Shown here in pieces: positions 2,247 to 9,918 of a DNA stretch of 10,072 bases (position 1 is the first letter of the stretch; the number at the start of each line of letters is the position of its first letter). Under the pieces are notes generated by a model, which worked only from the letters and a program-made list of their open reading frames with translations, had not been told where the DNA came from and made no database searches. This DNA is from Tubulinosema ratisbonensis (lineage: Eukaryota; Microsporidia; Tubulinosematidae), in NCBI GenBank assembly GCA_004000155.1, contig RCSS01000220.1, forward strand, positions 1 to 10,072, written 5' to 3'. The position numbers and the translations under genes were made by a program.

Positions 2247-2844
2247 GGTTTACATAAAATTACTTTTATTTTTTAAACATATATCCAATTTAAAAAATTA
2301 ATATTTAGGTATTAAAAAATAATTAAAAATCTGAATTAACAAAATATCTTTTTTACGATCCAATTTTGCATTGAGTACTTTTTTCTAGTTTGCTTTTTTG
2401 CTCTAGGGGTGAATAATCCATACAAAGATCTTTTCGCTATGCCTTCTATATAAAATTTAAATACCTAGTTAAAAGAAACATATGGTAAAATATATTTTTA
2501 CATAATTAGGTATAACTCAAGATACTTCGATCCTTTCAACTGCTAAACTCCAATCTTATGCACTCTATTGACTGCCTAAGTCTACCTTTGTTTTACATAA
2601 AATTATTTATTTTCTAATATGAAATAAAATTAATATTTTTCATAAAAATTTAATATTTTTTAAATTGATTTTTTAATTTAATATTTTTTTTGTATTACAT
2701 AAAAATATTTTTTTCAAATCAAATGAATTTAAGATTTTTTATTATGAAATAAAAATAATAGTCTTTATAAAAGAAATTAAATATTTTTTATTATATAATT
2801 AATTAAATAGTTTTAAATACAAATACAATTNNTTTATGCATAAA
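2247..2844. other. Intergenic stretch with repeat copy A
   Basis: Nearly 600 bp between the converging CDC25 and RFC genes. It holds repeat copy A (2420-2590). The rest is A/T runs with several near-copies of TTTAATATTTTTT between 2625 and 2690. Two bases (2831-2832) are undetermined. TTTACATAAAATTA occurs exactly at 2249-2262 and 2592-2605, on either side of copy A. No protein gene is visible. Confidence 0.7.
2420..2590 (+). repeat. Repeat copy A: TATA-box-bearing element with nested hairpin
   Basis: First of four related elements in the window. In order it has: an upstream block containing AAGATCTTTTCGCT (2425-2438, exact in copy B); a TATA-like box TATATAAAAT (2447-2456); a stem ATACCTAGTT / AATTAGGTAT (2461-2470 with 2504-2513, one G·T pair); an inner hairpin with arms ATGGTAAAA and TTTTTACAT (about 2482-2490 / 2495-2503); and a 3' block 2528-2590 containing CGATCCTTTC and ATGCACTCTATTGACT (2558-2573). 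That 16-mer recurs exactly, inverted, in copy D. It has no open reading frame. It could be a non-coding RNA gene or a small non-autonomous mobile element; I match it to no named RNA. Confidence 0.7.
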
Positions 2845-3894
2845 TTATTCTTTTTTATTCAACAAATAAATCAAATATGCTGCAAAGCATTCTAAATGTA
2901 AAATACTTTTATTTCCAATTTTGATTCTCTCTTCACATACTGCTGCTTTTTCAAGTATTTGTTTATAAATATAAAAACTAACCTTCTTCGATAAAAGTTT
3001 AACCATTTCTAAAAGAATCACCGATGGTGGAACACAAGTACCTAGCAAAAAGTAGAAATCTTCCCTTGCACTCTTTAAGCTTTGTACACTGTGATCTCTT
3101 AGTAAGAAATTTANAGTGTTTTCTATCTTCTGTTCCCATTCATTTTTGGTGATTTCTACCTTCTTTCTTTTACCTTCCAAAAAGGGCAAACTGTTAATTT
3201 CCAAAAGACTCAAAATTCTTTCTAAGTTTCCGTTTGACTCTTCATAAAGGAGTTTTACAAAATTTTCATCAAATTTTGCATTTTCTTTTGTTAAAATTTG
3301 TTTACAAATAAAAAGACATTCTTCCAAAGTAAATGTTTTGACTCTTAGTGAAAGAAACCTACTTTTTATTGGGTCAATGATAGTGGAAAGCTGCTCACAC
3401 ATTAAAATAATCCTAAAACAAGAAGAATACTGCTCTACAGTTCTTCTAAGCCCAGCCTGAGCATCTTTAGTCAATCTCTCTGCATTCATTATCACTAAAA
3501 TTCTTGTGTTTAGTTTTTTATTTGACTTAAAAAATTCTAAAATAGGTCTTGTTTGTGCCATTTGTTTTATAAATGTTTGTACAATAAATTTATCTTTGTT
3601 TCCATAGTTAGATGGGGTTATTTCAATGTACTCTTCTGATTCAAAGAATTCTATTTCTATTTTTTGGTCTGAATTTGTTTCTATTTCTGTCTTTTTATGC
3701 TTAAAATTTTGTATTTTTCCACTTAAATGGTTTATCAAAGAATATAATAAAGTTCTTTTTCCTGAGCCATTTTTACCATATAGTACTAAATGTGGCATTG
3801 TTTCTATTGAATATTCTTGTAATAAATTTACTAATTCAGTGTGAGTGTTCATTTCTTTAAATGATTTAGGTCTGTATTTTTCTAACCATAACAT
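2845..3894 (-). CDS. RFC5: Replication factor C small subunit (yeast Rfc5 / human RFC3 type)
   Basis: Subunit of the heteropentameric AAA+ clamp loader that opens PCNA and places it on primer-template junctions. The 349 residues match the family length (about 350). It begins LWLEKYRPKSF, the RFC signature, then Walker A GKNGSGKRT at 40-48. The Walker B place (VIMNAERL, 134-141) lacks the DE pair. LTKDAQAGLRRT (141-152) and the SRC-type motif as SRF (178-180) follow. A degenerate Walker B, the HLVLYGKNGSGK context and the long insertion at about 58-88 fit the subunit called Rfc5 in yeast and RFC3 in human rather than the catalytic RFC2/3/4. The C-terminal half carries the collar helices. Codon 261 contains an undetermined base (3114); any base there gives Ile, Leu or Val, so the reading frame is unaffected. 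CC at -5/-6 supports the start. Confidence 0.95.
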   Translation of the reverse strand: MLWLEKYRPKSFKEMNTHTELVNLLQEYSIETMPHLVLYGKNGSGKRTLLYSLINHLSGKIQNFKHKKTEIETNSDQKIEIEFFESEEYIEITPSNYGNKDKFIVQTFIKQMAQTRPILEFFKSNKKLNTRILVIMNAERLTKDAQAGLRRTVEQYSSCFRIILMCEQLSTIIDPIKSRFLSLRVKTFTLEECLFICKQILTKENAKFDENFVKLLYEESNGNLERILSLLEINSLPFLEGKRKKVEITKNEWEQKIENTXNFLLRDHSVQSLKSAREDFYFLLGTCVPPSVILLEMVKLLSKKVSFYIYKQILEKAAVCEERIKIGNKSILHLECFAAYLIYLLNKKE

Positions 3895-4029
3895 TTAAGG
3901 ATAAAAAAATTTAATTTTTTTTTATAAAATTAAATATAAATTAATATTTAATTTTTTCTTTTTTTAAAAAAACAATTAACAAAATAGTTTTTTTTCTAAA
4001 ATAAATAAATAAAATATTAATACAATTAA

Positions 4030-4347
4030 TTAATTTATATTTAATTTTTTGATTTCTTTTTTTAAAATTTTTCTTTGAAATTTGTTTAAACTTTGTAATT
4101 CTCCTAAACACTTTTTATAAACATTTTCCACAGAAAGATTCTTATTTTCTAGGATAATATCTTCTATAAAATAATAAAAATTTGATCTTGGGACAAAGTC
4201 ACTCTTTTTCTTTTTCACTTTGCTACGTTCATAAACATCATTTATTTTTAAATTTGTAGAATAAGTTGGCTCTGTTTTGTTTTCTAAATTATAAAATGTG
4301 GTTCTCATTAATTTACATATTTTTGCTAAATGATCTCCACATACCAT
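4030..4347 (-). CDS. Small hypothetical protein, 105 aa
   Basis: Not recognised. It is Lys/Asn-rich with two Cys near the start (C3, C11), a basic patch KVKKKK near 44-49, then two predicted helices (about 58-80 and 84-103) ending in a Lys-rich tail. It has no signal peptide or membrane segment. It lies about 100 bp downstream of the tRNA-Trp gene on the same strand and 135 bp upstream of the RFC gene, in an otherwise low-complexity AT region. Its mixed amino-acid content and lack of homopolymer runs argue for a real gene, but it could also be a remnant of a longer one. Confidence 0.5.
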   Translation of the reverse strand: MVCGDHLAKICKLMRTTFYNLENKTEPTYSTNLKINDVYERSKVKKKKSDFVPRSNFYYFIEDIILENKNLSVENVYKKCLGELQSLNKFQRKILKKEIKKLNIN

Positions 4348-4439
4348 TATTTTGTAATTTATTTTTTTCGATAAAAAGGTATTTTTAATTTTTTGTTTTT
4401 TCTTTCATGGGCAACTTTTTTTTTAAAATATTTTTTAAG

Positions 4440-4443
4440 AAAA
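4440..4443 (-). terminator. Pol III T-run after tRNA-Trp
   Basis: On the minus strand four T residues follow the discriminator base of the tRNA directly, then C and TT, with longer T-runs further on. Four or more T residues are the normal RNA polymerase III stop signal. Confidence 0.7.
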
Positions 4444-4515
4444 TGACCGAAGCAGGATTCGAACCTACAACCTTGAGATCTGGAATCTCCTGCGCTACCG
4501 TTGCGCCATCCGGTC
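4444..4515 (-). tRNA. tRNA-Trp (anticodon CCA), intronless
   Basis: A 72-nt cloverleaf. The acceptor stem GACCGGA / TTCGGTC pairs throughout with one G·T; D arm GCGC / GCGC; anticodon loop TTCCAGA gives CCA; T arm GTAGG / CCTGC around TTCGAAT; discriminator A. The internal promoters are typical: A box TGGCGCAACGG and B box GGTTCGAATCC. The first anticodon-stem pair is a G-A mismatch. No intron is present and CCA is not encoded, as expected for a nuclear gene. The CCA anticodon reads UGG only; the genes here also use TAA and TGA as stops, consistent with the standard code. Confidence 0.97.
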
Positions 4516-4579
4516 TGTTTACTTATTTAAAAAATATTTTTATAACATCTTTAAAGAAAAAATAGATGTTTTTTGAAAG

Positions 4580-4609
4580 TTACAAAAGAATTTCAGATTC
4601 TTTTTGTAA
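4580..4609. repeat. Short strong hairpin upstream of tRNA-Trp
   Basis: TTACAAAAGAAT (4580-4591), loop TTCAG, ATTCTTTTTGTAA (4597-4609): 12 pairs with one bulged T. It lies about 65 bp on the 5' side of the tRNA gene. It may be a cruciform or a transcript hairpin; role unknown. Confidence 0.6.
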
Positions 4610-4643
4610 GAAATATAAAATGAGTTAAAAAAATAATAATTTA

Positions 4644-4705
4644 AATAATTAAAAATTTACTTTATATTTTACAGAAAATATTAAAAGTAAAAAATTTTAA
4701 TTATT
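4644..4705. repeat. AT-only long hairpin
   Basis: Arms at about 4644-4670 and 4675-4705 around an ACAG loop. The outer AATAATTAAAA pairs with TTTTAATTATT; ACTTT with AAAGT and ATATTTT with AAAATAT lie further in, with small bulges between. Because it is almost purely A/T it is weaker evidence than its neighbours, but the arms pair across nearly the whole 62 bp. Confidence 0.45.
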
Positions 4706-4777
4706 GAAATAAAAAATATTTTTTTATAACTTTATTATAGATAACTCCCTTTTAGTTAAGCTCATTATAAAAGAATA

Positions 4778-4846
4778 TGGTTGTTTAGGTATTATTACTA
4801 TTTGTTTATACAATCAATGAATAACAACCAGTTTTATGGTAATAAT
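4778..4846. repeat. Interlocked inverted repeats (pseudoknot topology)
   Basis: TGGTTGTT (4778-4785) pairs with AACAACCA (4823-4830); ATTATTAC (4791-4798) pairs with GTAATAAT (4839-4846). The order is a-b-a'-b', so both stems together would form an H-type pseudoknot in RNA. Function unknown. Confidence 0.35.
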
Positions 4847-4891
4847 TCTAATATTTGAAGTTTAAACAAATTTTTTTTGTTGAAATTAATT

Positions 4892-4919
4892 TATTATTTT
4901 AGTATTGAATAAAATAATA
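4892..4919. repeat. Perfect 10-bp inverted repeat
   Basis: TATTATTTTA (4892-4901) and TAAAATAATA (4910-4919) flank an 8-nt loop. All pairs are A-T. It belongs to the local cluster of hairpins. Confidence 0.4.
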
Positions 4920-4975
4920 CATTCCTTTTTTCAAGTAAAATATATTCTGGTTTATATAATTAGTTTGTTTTGTTA

Positions 4976-5000
4976 AATCTTAACAGTACAATTAAGGATT
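4976..5000. repeat. Short inverted repeat
   Basis: AATCTTAA (4976-4983) pairs with TTAAGGATT (4992-5000) with one bulged G, across the loop CAGTACAA. It lies 20 bp before the longer inverted repeat starting at 5021. Confidence 0.35.
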
Positions 5001-5020
5001 CTTTATCAACTTTCCTATAA

Positions 5021-5115
5021 GATTAGAGTTTTTAATTTATTCAAAGAGAAGTTTGTAAAATGCTTTTTTATAAATATTTTCTTTTCTAATTTTTTATGAA
5101 ATTAAAACTCTAATC
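5021..5115. repeat. 95-bp element bounded by 17-18-bp inverted repeats
   Basis: The left arm at 5021-5038 begins GATTAGAG; the right arm at 5099-5115 ends CTCTAATC. They are reverse complements apart from one extra T on the left, and enclose 60 bp of AT-rich sequence without an ORF. Size and shape resemble a MITE-like insertion or a long transcript hairpin. No target-site duplication is evident. Confidence 0.6.
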
Positions 5116-5257
5116 ATTTCTTCTTGAATTTTATGTTAATACTTAATTATTAGATTTTGAATTACAAAAATCACTAGCTGTTACAATCTTAGTTTGTCTA
5201 AAATAATTTCACCCTCTTTTATAATATTTGTTTTTGTTGACAATAGATAGGCAATTC

Positions 5258-5463
5258 ATACGAAGATCTTTTCGCTCTACCTTTTATATAAAATAAAATA
5301 CCTAGTCATAATAAACATTAAGCAAAGTATGTTTCTCACAATTAGGTATAGCGCAAAATACAGCAAGTTTTTACCCGTCAAAACCCACCCGTGCATCCCT
5401 AGGCAACAAAAAAACCCCCACCCCGTGCATTTAATTTACTGCCTAGTCCAGCTTACCTTGCAG
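5258..5463 (+). repeat. Repeat copy B, with a C-rich duplicated 3' block
   Basis: Closest relative of copy A in the 5' part: ATACGAAGATCTTTTCGCT (5258-5276), TATATAAAAT (5285-5294), and the stem ATACCTAGT / ATTAGGTAT (5298-5306 with 5341-5349, one G·T pair). The inner hairpin has quite different arms, AAACAT / ATGTTT (5313-5318 / 5329-5334), at the same place as in A. The 3' block is more C-rich and expanded: CCCGTGCAT occurs at 5388-5396 and again at 5422-5430, separated by an A-run and C-run, and CTAGGCA (5399-5405) can pair with TGCCTAG (5440-5446). The C-runs stand out against the AT-rich surroundings. No ORF. Confidence 0.7.
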
Positions 5464-5466
5464 TAT

Positions 5467-5545
5467 TTGATTACAGGAATGATATTTATATATTCATGCA
5501 AAATCTAACACTGTATTTCTGAGCTATAAATATTCCTGTAATCAA
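5467..5545. repeat. Hairpin between convergent repeat copies B and C
   Basis: TTGATTACAGGAAT (5467-5480) and ATTCCTGTAATCAA (5532-5545) are perfect 14-bp inverted repeats. Pairing continues inward (ATTTATA / TATAAAT) after a 3-nt bulge. It lies exactly between the 3' ends of copies B (+) and C (-), so it could act as a shared bidirectional end signal or be the centre of an ancestral inverted insertion. Confidence 0.6.
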
Positions 5546-5551
5546 GGATTG

Positions 5552-5708
5552 AGATAAAGTAGACTATGATGTCAATTGTGCACAAAGGTAGGTTTTAGCA
5601 TGCGAAAGGATCGCAGTTTAAAGCCATGCTGGTAATGTATAAAGAAACTATTACTTTGTGCTACTTTTATAAATGCGTAAAAATTTTATATAATAGAATA
5701 GCGTAACC
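5552..5708 (-). repeat. Repeat copy C, inverted relative to B, with multi-stem folding
   Basis: Read on the minus strand it has, in order: TTACGCTATTC, resembling the CGCTATGCC block of A; TATATAAAAT (about 5683-5692); a variable hairpin GTAAT / ATTAC (5632-5636 and 5650-5654); CGATCCTTTC (5604-5613, exact in A); TGCTAAAACC; and ATTGAC followed by GTCTAC as in A. It can also fold into an outer stem GCACAAAG / CTTTGTGC (5580-5587 with 5654-5661) enclosing AGCATG / CATGCT (5597-5602 with 5625-5630) and GCGA / TCGC. Conserved motifs with changed stem sequences suggest a structured RNA. It is more diverged than A and B. Confidence 0.6.
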
Positions 5709-5888
5709 ATAATTTTTTGTATAAATTTTTAATTCTTAAGGAATAAAAAAACTTTTTAAATATTTTTACAGCAGTATATTTTTATAGAATTATCGCAGCT
5801 TCTTTCTTCTTTGAAAAAAATAAAAATCAATCTTATTTACAAATATTTTTTTGATTGACTAGGTGTCATAGATGCTATTTTTTACTAG

Positions 5889-6000
5889 AAATTTTCTAAA
5901 AATAAATTTTATTATAAATCAGTCTAATTCTACAAATATTGTTAAATTACCATGTTTTGTTGGTGATATTTTTTTCCCTACAAAATTTTCTAAAAATAAA
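5889..6000. repeat. Exact 18-bp direct repeat, two copies
   Basis: AAATTTTCTAAAAATAAA occurs at 5889-5906 and 5983-6000, a 94-bp period. The repeat itself is AT-rich. It may be a local duplication; no function is suggested. Confidence 0.5.
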
Positions 6001-6066
6001 ATTTTTTAAAGTATTTCAAAATGGCTTAATTATTTTTTGCTTAATAAATTAGATTTCAACAGTTAT

Positions 6067-6155
6067 TTTTTATGTGATGATATTAAACTTATGATCCAAA
6101 TTTCTTAGAATTTATCACACAAAAAAATTTATTAAATTATATCATCACATAAAAA
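6067..6155. repeat. 89-bp element with perfect 17-bp inverted ends
   Basis: TTTTTATGTGATGATAT (6067-6083) and ATATCATCACATAAAAA (6139-6155) are exact reverse complements enclosing 55 bp with no ORF. It ends 109 bp beyond the primase stop codon and lies in the direction of primase transcription, so it might form a hairpin in that 3' region; alternatively it is a MITE-like insertion. Confidence 0.65.
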
Positions 6156-6264
6156 TCTTTAAAATACTTTTACTTCTTCTTATTTTCTCAAATATTGATA
6201 TTTATTTCTAGTTAGTAAAAAAGATTGATATCATTTGCAAAGAAAAAGTAAAATATTTAATCAC

Positions 6265-7083
6265 TCAAAAAAGAAGTTCTTTTACATATTCATCAAGGAT
6301 ACTTGGCTCATTTATCACATCGCTTAAAGTTGGTATATCATCCAAATACAAATCATCAATATTTCTAGCATGTACAGGAATACAAACCTTTTTGCTCAAA
6401 GGATGAATACAGAAAGGTGCTTTGAGTAAATGATTTAAATCATGGCTAACTTTAGCATCCAATTTTAAATAATATTTTTCTATTAATTCTTTATGATCTT
6501 TCAAATCAAAATATTCTTTTAAAATGTTTATATATTCTTCTACAAACAATCCCTTTTGATTTACGTAGTTTATATAACCAGTTAATGACTTTCTTTCTAA
6601 ACCATCTAACAAAAGTGCATCTTCATCAAATACCCAGCAATGTAAACCTCTGTTTCCTGAGAAAAAAAATTTAATTTTTTTAAAGCCAAATTCTTGGCTT
6701 AAAATGTAATTTAGTAGTTTTACTGACACTTTTATTATAGTAAAACAAATCGAACAGATTGATTTACCTGTACAACAATCTCTGGGATAATCTGTTAAGT
6801 CAATGTCAAACACCAATTCTTTCTTTTCTGGTATGTTGTTTAAACCTTTTTGTGGTCTTTCTTTATAAATTGCTCCTATATCAAATTTGGTTGGTACTTT
6901 CTCACAAACAATCGACTTAAACTCTTGAACAGTGTTAAACGTATTATATCGCAAGTAAGCTTCATTGGCAAGAGTAAGTGAAAATTCTCTTCGATCGTTT
7001 ACTCTGAATAAATCAAACATCTGAGCAAATGGATATGAGTTTTCGTAATATTTTTTTAACTTTGTTGTTTCGTTTTCATCCAT
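6265..7083 (-). CDS. PRI1: DNA primase small (catalytic) subunit
   Basis: Synthesises the RNA primers that DNA polymerase alpha extends at replication origins and on the lagging strand. All expected AEP-fold motifs are visible: catalytic D93 and D95 in VFDIDLTDY; a zinc site C103, C104, C110, C113; nucleotide-binding SGNRGLHCW at 142-150 (R145, H148); the third metal ligand D209 in KLDAKVS; and HLLKAPFCIHP at 218-228 (K221, H227). At 272 residues it is much shorter than human or yeast enzymes (about 410-420). The helical region between W150 and D209 is cut to about 60 residues and the C-terminal extension after 255 is nearly absent, yet the active site is complete, so this looks like reduction rather than decay. 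It is divergently paired with NBP35, 50 bp apart, so both promoters must lie in a short A/T tract. Confidence 0.95.
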   Translation of the reverse strand: MDENETTKLKKYYENSYPFAQMFDLFRVNDRREFSLTLANEAYLRYNTFNTVQEFKSIVCEKVPTKFDIGAIYKERPQKGLNNIPEKKELVFDIDLTDYPRDCCTGKSICSICFTIIKVSVKLLNYILSQEFGFKKIKFFFSGNRGLHCWVFDEDALLLDGLERKSLTGYINYVNQKGLFVEEYINILKEYFDLKDHKELIEKYYLKLDAKVSHDLNHLLKAPFCIHPLSKKVCIPVHARNIDDLYLDDIPTLSDVINEPSILDEYVKELLF

Positions 7084-7133
7084 TGATAAAAAAAATTTTT
7101 TTATTAATTAAAAAAAAAAAATAAAAATTAGCC

Positions 7134-7904
7134 ATGTCAAAGTGTCCAGGGATGTCTTCGAAAGAAGCCGGAAAATCTTCAGCTTGTACAGGATGTCCTA
7201 ACCAATCCACTTGCTCTACAAAAGTAGAAGACCCAAGTATAGAAATCATAAAACATAAATTCGCTAATCATAAAAAGATTGCTATAATGAGCGGAAAAGG
7301 AGGAGTTGGTAAATCAACAGTTTCCAAAACATTTTCACAATTTCTATCTAAGAAACATTCAGTTTGTTTAATTGATTTAGACATAACAGGTCCTTCTACA
7401 CCCATACTTGTTAATAGTAACAGTTTAGGGATAATAAACCAAATCTCTGACCAGTTTTATTCCTTCGTACCCCTTTTTGACTTCAAAGAAACATTTTTAG
7501 AAAATGATTTTGAGCTGGCAAATGTTTTAATTTTTGATACTCCACCCAATGTCACTCAATCCCACTTAGACATAGTTAAGTATCTTAATTTGGATGGTGT
7601 TATAATTGTCACGCAGCCACACTTTTTATCATTCAATGATTGTAAAAGGATGATTGATTTTTGTAAAAAAGCTAAATTTAGAATATTAGGGGTAATAGTG
7701 AACATGGATGGATTTGTTTGTGAATGTGGTACTATTAATGACAGTATAGAAGATGGAAAATATTTTTGTGAGCAAAACAATGTTAAATATTTAGGAAGTA
7801 TTAAATTAAAGAAAGAAATTGCCATGAAATGTGATAAAGGCAATGATTTAGAGATAGAAGAATATGAAAATATTTATAAAGAAATAGAATTAATATTTGA
7901 ATAA
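7134..7904 (+). CDS. NBP35: Cytosolic Fe-S assembly scaffold ATPase Nbp35
   Basis: MinD/Mrp-type P-loop NTPase that, with Cfd1, assembles [4Fe-4S] clusters for cytosolic and nuclear proteins. The N-terminal ferredoxin-like motif C4-x13-C18-x2-C21-x5-C27 is intact and separates Nbp35 from Cfd1. The deviant Walker A SGKGGVGKST spans 53-62; the switch I DLDITGPS is at 81-88; the DTPP switch II is at 135-138. Two oddities: the normally CPxC bridging-cluster motif after NMDGF reads C196-E-C198 (CxC), and the protein is 256 residues against about 320 usually, having lost the segment that normally carries the WRGP motif between switch I and switch II. The conserved Cys further on (C212) and the MKCDKG motif (231-236) remain. 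Probably functional and miniaturised. GCC directly precedes the start codon. Confidence 0.94.
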   Translation: MSKCPGMSSKEAGKSSACTGCPNQSTCSTKVEDPSIEIIKHKFANHKKIAIMSGKGGVGKSTVSKTFSQFLSKKHSVCLIDLDITGPSTPILVNSNSLGIINQISDQFYSFVPLFDFKETFLENDFELANVLIFDTPPNVTQSHLDIVKYLNLDGVIIVTQPHFLSFNDCKRMIDFCKKAKFRILGVIVNMDGFVCECGTINDSIEDGKYFCEQNNVKYLGSIKLKKEIAMKCDKGNDLEIEEYENIYKEIELIFE

Positions 7905-7930
7905 TTTAAAATGCTTTTAGGGAGAGATGT

Positions 7931-7958
7931 TTTATTTTTTAGTTACAGAGAGAATTTT
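7931..7958 (+). repeat. Dispersed direct repeat, first copy
   Basis: AGTTACAGAGAGAATTTT (7941-7958) recurs with one mismatch at 9928-9945, each preceded by TTTATTTT. The two copies bracket a 2-kb region without a well-supported protein gene. It could be a remnant of a larger repeat. Confidence 0.4.
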
Positions 7959-8425
7959 AGAGGCGTTTTATAAAAATAAGACGTAAAAATTTTACTCCAA
8001 AATTTCTGTAAAAAAGGAGATTATTTAATTTTTAATAATTTTATGTATTTAAAAAATTATTTATTTTATCTAAAAAAATATTTATATTCTATAAATTATT
8101 CTACTTTAAATTTTTAAATAAATCAAAGTAAAATTTATAAAAATATCAATTTTTTTAAAATTTATAACAAAGTAGTACAAATAAATTAAAATACTATGAT
8201 AAAAAATTAATATAATTAAAAGTATCCAATTTTTATCTTTTAAGAATACTTGTTATATCTTAAGAGATATTTAAATACTAAATGATTATAAAATATAAAA
8301 GAATGTTTTTTTATTTTCTTTATTTAAATTGTTTTTATAATTTTGATATTTCATGATCTCATTCTATTTTTTATTTTTAAAACATTTTTAATTAAATAAA
8401 AAATAATTATTGAGGATTTGAATTC

Positions 8426-8470
8426 ATAAAACGTTTGCTGGGTATAGCAATGTTAAAACAACAGTTTTAT
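8426..8470. repeat. Nested stem-loop
   Basis: Outer arms ATAAAAC (8426-8432) and GTTTTAT (8464-8470) enclose TTGCT / AGCAA (8435-8439 with 8446-8450) with loop GGGTAT. Role unknown. Confidence 0.35.
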
Positions 8471-8580
8471 TTTAAGAATTAGTTAGTTTATAAAAAATAT
8501 TGTCGTGATTGAGAAGAATAATAATAATTATTTTTCTAGAAAAAACTTTATATTTAATAATAAAAATAAAATACTCCAAA

Positions 8581-8760
8581 ATGAGGACAGAGAACAAGAA
8601 TCACCACCCAAGGAACAACTTCAATAAAGGATTTAGCGGAAGTTTATATGATTGTTTACTTTTAAACGGGAAACCCCCAACGAGTCTCGACAATATCTAC
8701 ACATTTTCTTTAAATAAGGAGCTTATAATATGCTTTTATAATAAAAACTTAAGTGGATAA
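8581..8760 (+). CDS. Doubtful small ORF in a GC-richer island (59 codons)
   Basis: From the ATG at 8581 the frame encodes 59 residues, unrecognised, with a His/Asn-rich start and a hydrophobic stretch near the end. An in-frame ATG at 8509 adds 24 low-complexity residues from plain AT sequence and is unlikely to be the start. Over about 8581-8705 base composition and codon choice (AAC, CAC, AGG, CCC, CTC, GAC) differ plainly from the AAT/CAT/TTA bias of neighbouring genes. This suggests a recently acquired or selectively constrained segment: a small real gene, a fragment of a mobile element, or part of an RNA. No start signal beyond CTCC a few bases upstream. Confidence 0.3.
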   Translation: MRTENKNHHPRNNFNKGFSGSLYDCLLLNGKPPTSLDNIYTFSLNKELIICFYNKNLSG

Positions 8761-8985
8761 AAAAAGATTAGAAGAAATATTCTTGTACTTTTATTAATTA
8801 ATATAATGAAGAATTGATAATGCTTTTTTAAAATAGTGATTATTTTCATATAAATTTAACACTTTGGTGTATAACTATATATTTTATTTGTCTTTTATTT
8901 TAAACATGGTTTTTCTCTTATACTTACTTCTAACAAAATAATATAAACAAATTAGTCATCTCCTTTGGCTTGCGAAGTAATTTAA

Positions 8986-9133
8986 AATTTTTTGGTGAAA
9001 CCTTTTGATTGAAACTATTAAAGCTAATTTTATACATGCTTTTGCTTTAATTTAAATTAGCAGTTTCTTAAAAATCTCAAAAACAAAGTAAAGTTTTAAA
9101 GTATGCCTAATTTTAGGTAAACTTTCGTGAGAT
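8986..9133 (+). other. Candidate structured RNA: Sm-like site followed by stem-loops
   Basis: AATTTTTTGG (8986-8995) fits the Sm-site pattern of spliceosomal-type RNAs. It is followed by a mini-hairpin GGTGAAACC, then by GAAACT / AGTTTC (9011-9016 with 9062-9067) enclosing GCTAATTT / AAATTAGC (9023-9030 with 9054-9061), then by ATCTCA / TGAGAT (9074-9079 with 9128-9133) enclosing the near-palindrome CCTAATTTTAGG (9106-9117). Two substantial hairpins directly after an Sm-like site is the layout of an snRNA 3' half, but the 5' side shows no U1, U2, U4 or U5 signature. In an AT-rich genome an Sm-like string arises easily, so this is speculative. Confidence 0.25.
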
Positions 9134-9263
9134 ATTACAATATAATTTTTATAACTAAAAGACTATTCATATCTTAAAACAAATAATTTAATGTAAAATT
9201 TTAAATATACGATTAAAGAATAAAGGCACATTAAATATTTCGTATTGAATCATGAGATGTATC

Positions 9264-9280
9264 TGTTAATTTCATTAACA
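9264..9280. repeat. Perfect 7-bp hairpin, 3-nt loop
   Basis: TGTTAAT (9264-9270) and ATTAACA (9274-9280) flank TTC. Weaker outer ATTGA / TCAAT arms extend it. Confidence 0.35.
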
Positions 9281-9348
9281 CAATCAATTTATAATTTGAA
9301 AAAAGAGATATTTTAAAAATTGATGTATAAAAGAAAGATCCTTGTAAG

Positions 9349-9482
9349 TTAAGTTAAACTTAAGTAGTCAATAGAGTGCATGAGTGAGTTTTAGCAGGTG
9401 AAAAGCCCATAGTACAAGAATCTTTATGTTTGTAAACATATTTTAGAATATGATATTATTTGAATGGGTAACTTTATAAAAT
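9349..9482 (-). repeat. Repeat copy D
   Basis: Read on the minus strand: a TATA-like TTTTATAAAG near 9472-9481, a hairpin TATGTTT / AAACATA (9425-9440) at the place of the inner hairpin of A but with different arms, then CACCTGCTAAAACTC and ATGCACTCTATTGACT (9366-9381), the latter identical to copy A over 16 nt. The TTAAGTT-A-AACTTAA palindrome (9349-9363) lies at its 3' side. The upstream AAGATCTTTTCGCT block of A and B is not recognisable, so D may be 5'-diverged or truncated. Confidence 0.6.
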
Positions 9483-9918
9483 ATGTAGAATATATAGTTA
9501 TAAATTCTCTCATTAATTTTAACTTTTAAAAAACAAAACAATGATAGAAATATGATTTTATTTCAAAGTAAAAGTAATATTAATAGATCTTGTAAAATAT
9601 TAGTTATTTGAAATTTTAGCTAATAAAGGATGCTTAAAAAGAAAAGATTTTTGTGTTATAAATATATTTAAAATTTTTTTTTCATGTAAATTTTAAAATG
9701 GAAGATTTTATTAATTTATAAGTAAAATTACTTATGCATTACTTTTTTATTTAATACATGATTTTAAAAATAAATTTCAATTAATAAATAGATTTGATTC
9801 ATTTTAACAACTTTATAAAAGTATTTTCTTTTGTTGTAACATAAATGTAAGATAAAATAAAATATTTAAATATAACAAAGAAAAACTTAATATTATTCTA
9901 TTTTTACATATAAAAATA

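What the first reader, a model, noticed from the sequence alone, without database searches (positions are those of the whole stretch)
2420..9482. Unnamed four-copy element family with conserved blocks and shape-conserved hairpins
Copies at 2420-2590 (+), 5258-5463 (+), 5552-5708 (-) and 9349-9482 (-) share a recognisable 3' block (least clear in B), and A and D share an exact 16-mer in opposite orientations. A hairpin lies at the corresponding place in every copy with different arms: ATGGTAAAA/TTTTTACAT, AAACAT/ATGTTT, GTAAT/ATTAC, TATGTTT/AAACATA. Changed sequence with kept pairing is what selection on a structured RNA produces; a mobile element ending in hairpins is the alternative. I know no microsporidian RNA family that fits.
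Basis: partly seen in the sequence, partly recalled or inferred. Interest (0 to 1): 0.78.

Follow-up and report, generated by a model that had tools for sequence, protein, structure and literature searches.

The report
SINE-like LINE-end retroposon in a microsporidian
The four look-alike stretches are worn copies of a short copy-and-paste DNA parasite found over a hundred times in this microsporidian genome, probably cut from the tail of a larger jumping gene, and not a new family of RNA genes.

Summary
Target-site duplications of 11-16 bp flank 17 of 66 testable copies, some copies are 5'-truncated, and copy B holds a nested antisense fragment with its own A tail and duplication. These are marks of LINE-type (target-primed) retroposition. 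Longer copies continue upstream as an open frame that stops at core position ~46; at one place a LINE reverse-transcriptase remnant lies upstream. So the unit is probably a LINE 3' end mobilised as a short element. The hairpin argument fails: the four hairpins lie in different alignment columns, RNAalifold finds no consensus pair in 48 copies, and changes break the family hairpin more often than they keep it. I saw no report of SINEs in microsporidia in the searches made.

The parts
2394..2588 (-). Copy A: 5'-truncated at core position ~24, 85% to the core; T run 2394-2399 is the A tail on the other strand
5231..5477 (-). Copy B: full length (core 1-213), interrupted by a nested insert; T run 5231-5235 is the A tail on the other strand
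5396..5414 (+). Nested second insertion inside B: last 12 nt of the core (TCCCTAGGCAAC) plus A7, antisense to B
5384..5395 (+). Target-site duplication, first copy (CCCACCCGTGCA, 12 nt), of the nested insertion
   Evidence: other copies show the uninterrupted site
5417..5429 (+). Target-site duplication, second copy (CCCACCCCGTGCA, 13 nt), of the nested insertion
5535..5751 (+). Copy C: full length but old (65-66% to the core), A tail 5745-5751
9334..9519 (+). Copy D: core 10-197, 68%; the stretch beyond 9519 is A-rich but eroded

Best explanation
The copies belong to a dispersed, SINE-like, non-autonomous retroposon. Its RNA, 213 nt plus a short A tail, is copied at a nicked target by LINE-encoded reverse transcriptase and endonuclease (target-primed reverse transcription), giving A-tailed, sometimes 5'-truncated insertions with 11-16-bp duplications. 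Shown: copy number, A tails, duplications, truncation, a nested insertion, and duplications that abut core position 1 in many copies. Inferred: that the sequence is itself the 3' end of a LINE (last ~46 nt of its open frame plus ~167 nt of 3' untranslated region; about 0.75), that the sharp 5' end reflects a discrete short source RNA and not a reverse-transcriptase stop (about 0.6), that a LINE of this genome supplied the machinery, and that copies now simply decay. The confidence given is for the LINE-type retroposon itself.
For: Copies: 42 and 46 match rows for A and B, self and some second pieces included, with only 40 of 219 and 40 of 118 candidates scored; 144 sites for a 23-mer with up to 3 mismatches, reversed-pattern control 0. 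A tail: 56 of 67 copies with a complete 3' end have 6 or more A directly after the core, median 8, range 0-10. Duplications: own-flank score mean 15.6 against 10.7 (sd 0.38, highest of 200 re-pairings 12.2) in 45 copies that reach the core start; 13 of those 45 and 4 of 21 truncated copies exceed the 99th percentile of 4,290 mismatched pairs, lengths 11-16. 5' end: in 9 of the 13 the duplication ends within 1 nt of core position 1 or overlaps it. Nested insertion in B with its own tail and duplication. LINE origin: an upstream block recurs in 11 places, 10 running up to the core start; in C52 it is an open frame of 76 codons ending at core ~46; C201 has a reverse-transcriptase remnant upstream on the same strand (173 against a maximum of 119 in 100 shuffles; 143 against 84 in 60 shuffles). 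A non-LTR element with endonuclease-like and reverse-transcriptase frames exists on C19 and ends in a stretch 91% alike to core 163-195 over 33 nt, followed by A8.
Against: 49 of 66 copies show no duplication above the 99th percentile: expected for old copies in AT-rich DNA, but not shown. Only 31 of 68 copies have a 5' breakpoint within 8 nt of position 1 when the alignment may run upstream; 14 run 9-49 nt further, which I take for spill into AT-rich flank but did not separate from real extension, and 4 run further still. The C19 tail match could be a worn truncated copy that landed there; a test for a duplication flanking that LINE found nothing above background, and its endonuclease frame scores just under the Pfam cut-offs. 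In C201 about 480 nt between the remnant and the upstream block show no LINE similarity in the stricter alignment, and the stretches upstream of copies on C2, C36 and C60 gave no LINE match above shuffles. No Pfam match for the 76-codon frame. No pol III A and B boxes in a simple scan, which classical SINEs have.
Confidence: 0.9

Rival explanations
1. The copies are ordinary 5'-truncated copies of one LINE, with no separate short element; the common start at CCTGTAACC is a place where reverse transcription tends to stop. This is a sub-variant of the best explanation.
For: Longer copies exist: 11 places by DNA and 20 by protein, some short or weak. Other 5' ends occur: 10 of the 22 entries called truncated start at core 41-57 (one of them cut by the end of a held stretch, one B's own split), and four with duplications start at 41-55.
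Against: Thirteen insertions have their duplication at core position 1, and the upstream block is found in 11-20 places against 144 core sites; scattered truncation would not give that step. The sample favours copies that hold the span of A, so shorter ones are under-counted.
Confidence: 0.35
2. A family of structured, non-coding RNA genes under selection.
For: One column pair (114-140) changes on both sides between subfamilies, A-U in 20 and G-C in 19 copies; pairing and covariation score exceed all 500 shuffles.
Against: No consensus pair in 48 copies; 89 cells unpaired against 24 doubly changed, and a -2 slide scores as high; identity to the core runs from 96% down to 62% with truncated and interrupted copies; no Rfam family at its gathering score on an element.
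Confidence: 0.03
3. Retroposed 3' ends of a host mRNA and not of a LINE: the upstream block is the C-terminus of a cellular gene.
For: The 76-codon frame has no Pfam match and no LINE similarity of its own was shown.
Against: A search of the genome with that frame found 20 places, none with an open frame over 80 codons, so no intact host gene is seen in the assembly; C201 places a reverse-transcriptase remnant upstream.
Confidence: 0.15
4. A miniature inverted-repeat (DNA) transposon.
For: Short, AT-rich, many copies.
Against: No terminal inverted repeat is seen in the family alignment and one end is an A run; duplications vary from 11 to 16 bp; 5' truncation.
Confidence: 0.01

Closest known systems
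SINEs (short interspersed elements), in particular those made of LINE sequence such as Bov-A of ruminants (recalled, not from a call)
   Same: Short, non-coding, dispersed, A-tailed, variable target-site duplications, recurrent 5' end, probable LINE 3' end.
   Different: No tRNA, 5S or 7SL head found by Rfam and no pol III boxes in a simple scan; transcription untested; host is a microsporidian.
5'-truncated LINE copies (non-LTR retrotransposons); LINEs are reported in microsporidia (PMC4202319, PMC3486916, PMC3749934, PMC13174016: passages seen)
   Same: A tail, duplications, truncated members, coding sequence upstream in longer copies.
   Different: Many copies begin at one position (13 with a duplication there), and few carry the upstream block.
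Non-LTR element on contig C19 of the same genome (L091)
   Same: Tail of about 60 nt alike, ending in an A run.
   Different: Its C-terminus does not resemble the upstream block by eye, and its 3' region is otherwise single-copy.

Membership tests
LINE-mobilised retroposon | Variable-length target-site duplications | tested here: met
   17 of 66 copies above the 99th percentile of mismatched pairs, 11-16 bp
LINE-mobilised retroposon | 3' A tail | tested here: met
   56 of 67 copies with 6 or more A
LINE-mobilised retroposon | 5' truncation | tested here: met
   22 of 77 held entries, among them B's own split and one cut by the end of a held stretch; 4 of 21 testable ones have a duplication at the break
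SINE | Short, non-autonomous, fixed full length | tested here: met
   13 of 45 copies have their duplication at core position 1; weaker by alignment, 31 of 68 breakpoints within 8 nt
SINE | Internal pol III promoter (A and B boxes) | tested here: not met
   Simple consensus scan: no A-then-B arrangement in the core, while 140 of 500 shuffles have one
SINE | Head from tRNA, 5S rRNA or 7SL RNA | tested here: not met
   No such Rfam match at E up to 1 on 8 loci, nor up to 10 on one copy; old heads can escape
SINE | 3' end shared with a partner LINE | tested here: inconclusive
   Tail match to the C19 element and a remnant upstream on C201, each a single case
Structured RNA gene family | Conserved secondary structure with covariation | tested here: not met
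   0 consensus pairs; 19 of 24 double changes at one column pair
Structured RNA gene family | Discrete transcripts | not testable with these tools
   No RNA reads available
MITE | Terminal inverted repeats | tested here: not met
   Read from the family alignments; one end is an A run

The most novel reading that the evidence does not exclude
The first SINE-like family of a microsporidian, made wholly from a LINE's 3' end (last ~46 coding nt plus 3' UTR) and with a fixed 5' end that no pol III promoter explains, so that the LINE's own RNA processing or a programmed reverse-transcriptase stop makes the short element, in a 4.1-Mb eukaryotic genome assembly.
Probability: 0.4. Interest if true: 0.55.

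Novelty: new member of a known kind. Interest (0 to 1): 0.4.

Why it matters
Microsporidia are models of genome shrinkage; a family with over a hundred copies in a 4.1-Mb assembly would show that LINE-driven insertion still added DNA there. The copies could serve as insertion markers for strains of this lineage, and they warn annotators that short hairpin-bearing repeats in such genomes need not be RNA genes. What sets the 5' end is an open, testable question.

Tried and rejected
Rfam: on the window, the tRNA-Trp gene at 4444-4515 and one weak hit below its gathering score; on 8 loci, one weak hit outside the elements; on one copy at E up to 10, two weak hits below gathering. Copy C as a query found only itself, which alone would have looked like a singleton; alignment to the family core places it. 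Of 27 reverse-transcriptase matches, a motif scan in forward frames only showed Ty3/gypsy-like motifs (my reading) in 13 loci, some of them overlapping; the others were not classified except the C19 pair and the C157 piece. The C19 element was tested for a flanking duplication without result. A pol III promoter was sought and not found. A model search of the genome was not possible, so the copy number rests on a 23-mer pattern, of which only the first 100 places are listed. The random-window scores are not a clean control because windows holding the element were not removed. The species was not identified: the best primase relatives are an unnamed sequence at 75% and a partial one of Dictyocoela roeselum at 50%. 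Papers: searches were search listings; passages were seen in PMC4202319, PMC3486916, PMC3749934, PMC13174016 and PMC12558613; in PMC7313128 a search for the singular words found none. The statement that no report of SINEs in microsporidia was seen rests on the searches with SINE terms and on the term counts in those papers. The 77 held entries were de-duplicated by sequence and include B split in two and a few pieces cut by the end of a held stretch; 10 lack a complete 3' end and were left out of the tail and duplication counts. The BLAST starts cannot run upstream of the core, so they show that 45 copies reach its start, not that they end there; two searches were made for that.
Full report
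What was checked. The copies exist: each aligns to the family core well above 200 shuffles (50.9-126.5 against maxima of 17-23), and the 16-mer shared by A and D is exact. Used as queries, A gave 42 match rows and B 46, self and some second pieces included, with only 40 candidates scored in each case out of 219 and 118; D gave 24 rows and the old copy C found only itself. A 23-base pattern from the core, with up to three mismatches, occurs 144 times in the 4.1-Mb genome and its reversed control 0 times.

Anatomy. It is 213 nt, begins CCTGTAACC, ends GGCAAC and is followed by a run of A: 56 of 67 copies with a complete 3' end have 6 or more, median 8, range 0-10. In the loci held, 77 entries were counted: 45 that reach the core start, 22 that begin further in, 10 without a complete 3' end; these include copy B split in two and a few pieces cut by the end of a held stretch. 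Identity to the core runs from 96% to 62%: 29 at 90% or more, 29 at 80-90%, 19 below. Because queries were taken from A, B, C and D, shorter copies are under-sampled.

Insertion marks. The 5' flank of a copy resembles its own 3' flank more than those of other copies: mean score 15.6 against 10.7 (sd 0.38; highest of 200 re-pairings 12.2) in 45 copies. With 66 testable copies, 13 of 45 that reach the core start and 4 of 21 truncated ones exceed the 99th percentile of 4,290 mismatched pairs, with duplications of 11-16 bp, the best 16 bp exact. The other 49 show none above that level, as expected for old copies but not proven. Copy B holds the clearest single case: the last 12 nt of the core plus seven A, in antisense, sit between CCCACCCGTGCA and CCCACCCCGTGCA; leaving out the insert and one duplication raises the alignment score to the core from 107.3 to 115.0 and restores a colinear copy.

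Mechanism. A tails, variable duplications and 5' truncation together are the marks of target-primed reverse transcription by a LINE (established knowledge). Such machinery has been present here: contig C19 carries a non-LTR element in three open frames, two with reverse-transcriptase matches over the Pfam cut-off and one with endonuclease matches just under it. It has an A-ended tail that resembles the last ~60 nt of the core. That tail could instead be a worn truncated copy; a test for a duplication around that element was negative and its 3' region is otherwise unique.

Origin. An upstream block recurs in 11 places and in 10 runs up to the core start; C2, C36 and C82 share a further stretch upstream. 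In C52 the block is an open frame of 76 codons that ends at core position ~46, and parts of it recur in other copies. In C201 a reverse-transcriptase remnant lies upstream on the same strand (173 against a maximum of 119 in 100 shuffles; 143 against 84 in 60). I read the unit as the last coding bases and 3' untranslated region of a LINE. Against this: the frame has no Pfam match, about 480 nt in C201 between remnant and block show no LINE similarity in the stricter alignment, and the stretches upstream of copies on C2, C36 and C60 gave no LINE match above shuffles. No intact source was found; contigs C36 and C82 end inside long copies, so it may be missing from the assembly.

Fixed 5' end. In 9 of the 13 copies with a duplication at the core start, the duplication ends within 1 nt of position 1 or overlaps it, and the upstream block is found in 11 places by DNA and 20 by protein against 144 core sites. 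That points to a discrete short element. By alignment alone the picture is less sharp: 31 of 68 breakpoints lie within 8 nt of position 1, 14 run 9-49 nt further (probably spill into AT-rich flank, not separated) and 4 further still. No pol III boxes were found in a simple scan and no tRNA, 5S or SRP head by Rfam. What sets the 5' end is open: a short source RNA or a reverse-transcriptase stop.

The hairpin claim. RNAalifold gives no consensus pair on 48 copies. For the family hairpin, 88.2% of cells pair against 86.5% in shuffles, a value no shuffle reached, but 89 cells are unpaired against 24 with double changes, 19 of those 24 sit at one column pair and separate two subfamilies, and sliding the partners by -2 columns gives an equal covariation score. 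This is what decaying copies of two related masters would give; one compensating change between the masters may be real.

Known or new. LINEs are on record in microsporidia (passages of PMC4202319, PMC3486916, PMC3749934 and PMC13174016). I saw no report of SINEs there in the three searches with SINE terms (listings only) or in the passages opened. SINEs made of LINE ends, such as Bov-A, are known in animals (recalled). I therefore file this as a new member of a known kind, with the missing pol III promoter and the open 5'-end question as its less usual points.

Noticed in passing
window 6067-6083 / 6139-6155: Perfect 17-bp inverted repeat with a 55-nt spacer in the same gene-poor stretch; MITE-like or terminator-like.
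   Followed up: no
window 5021-5045 / 5091-5115: 25-nt inverted repeat, 80% complementary, 45-nt spacer, similar in plan to the one at 6067.
   Followed up: no
window 5467-5545: Copies B and C lie head to head with 57 bp between their 5' ends; a perfect 14-nt inverted repeat spans both starts and runs a few bases into the flanks.
   Followed up: no
loci L014, L021, L022, L034, L035, L037: A second group of 5' ends at core 41-55, near the stop codon of the inferred frame; L014, L022, L035 and L037 have duplications there.
   Followed up: partly
L091 (contig C19 8500-12800): Non-LTR element with endonuclease-like and reverse-transcriptase pieces in three open frames; the named hits of its second RT frame include an X-element-like transposon of Bactrocera oleae at E 5.6e-5.
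   Followed up: partly
L063-L089: Many reverse-transcriptase matches, 13 loci with Ty3/gypsy-like motifs, some with SINE-like copies in or beside them, for example L064 and L070.
   Followed up: no
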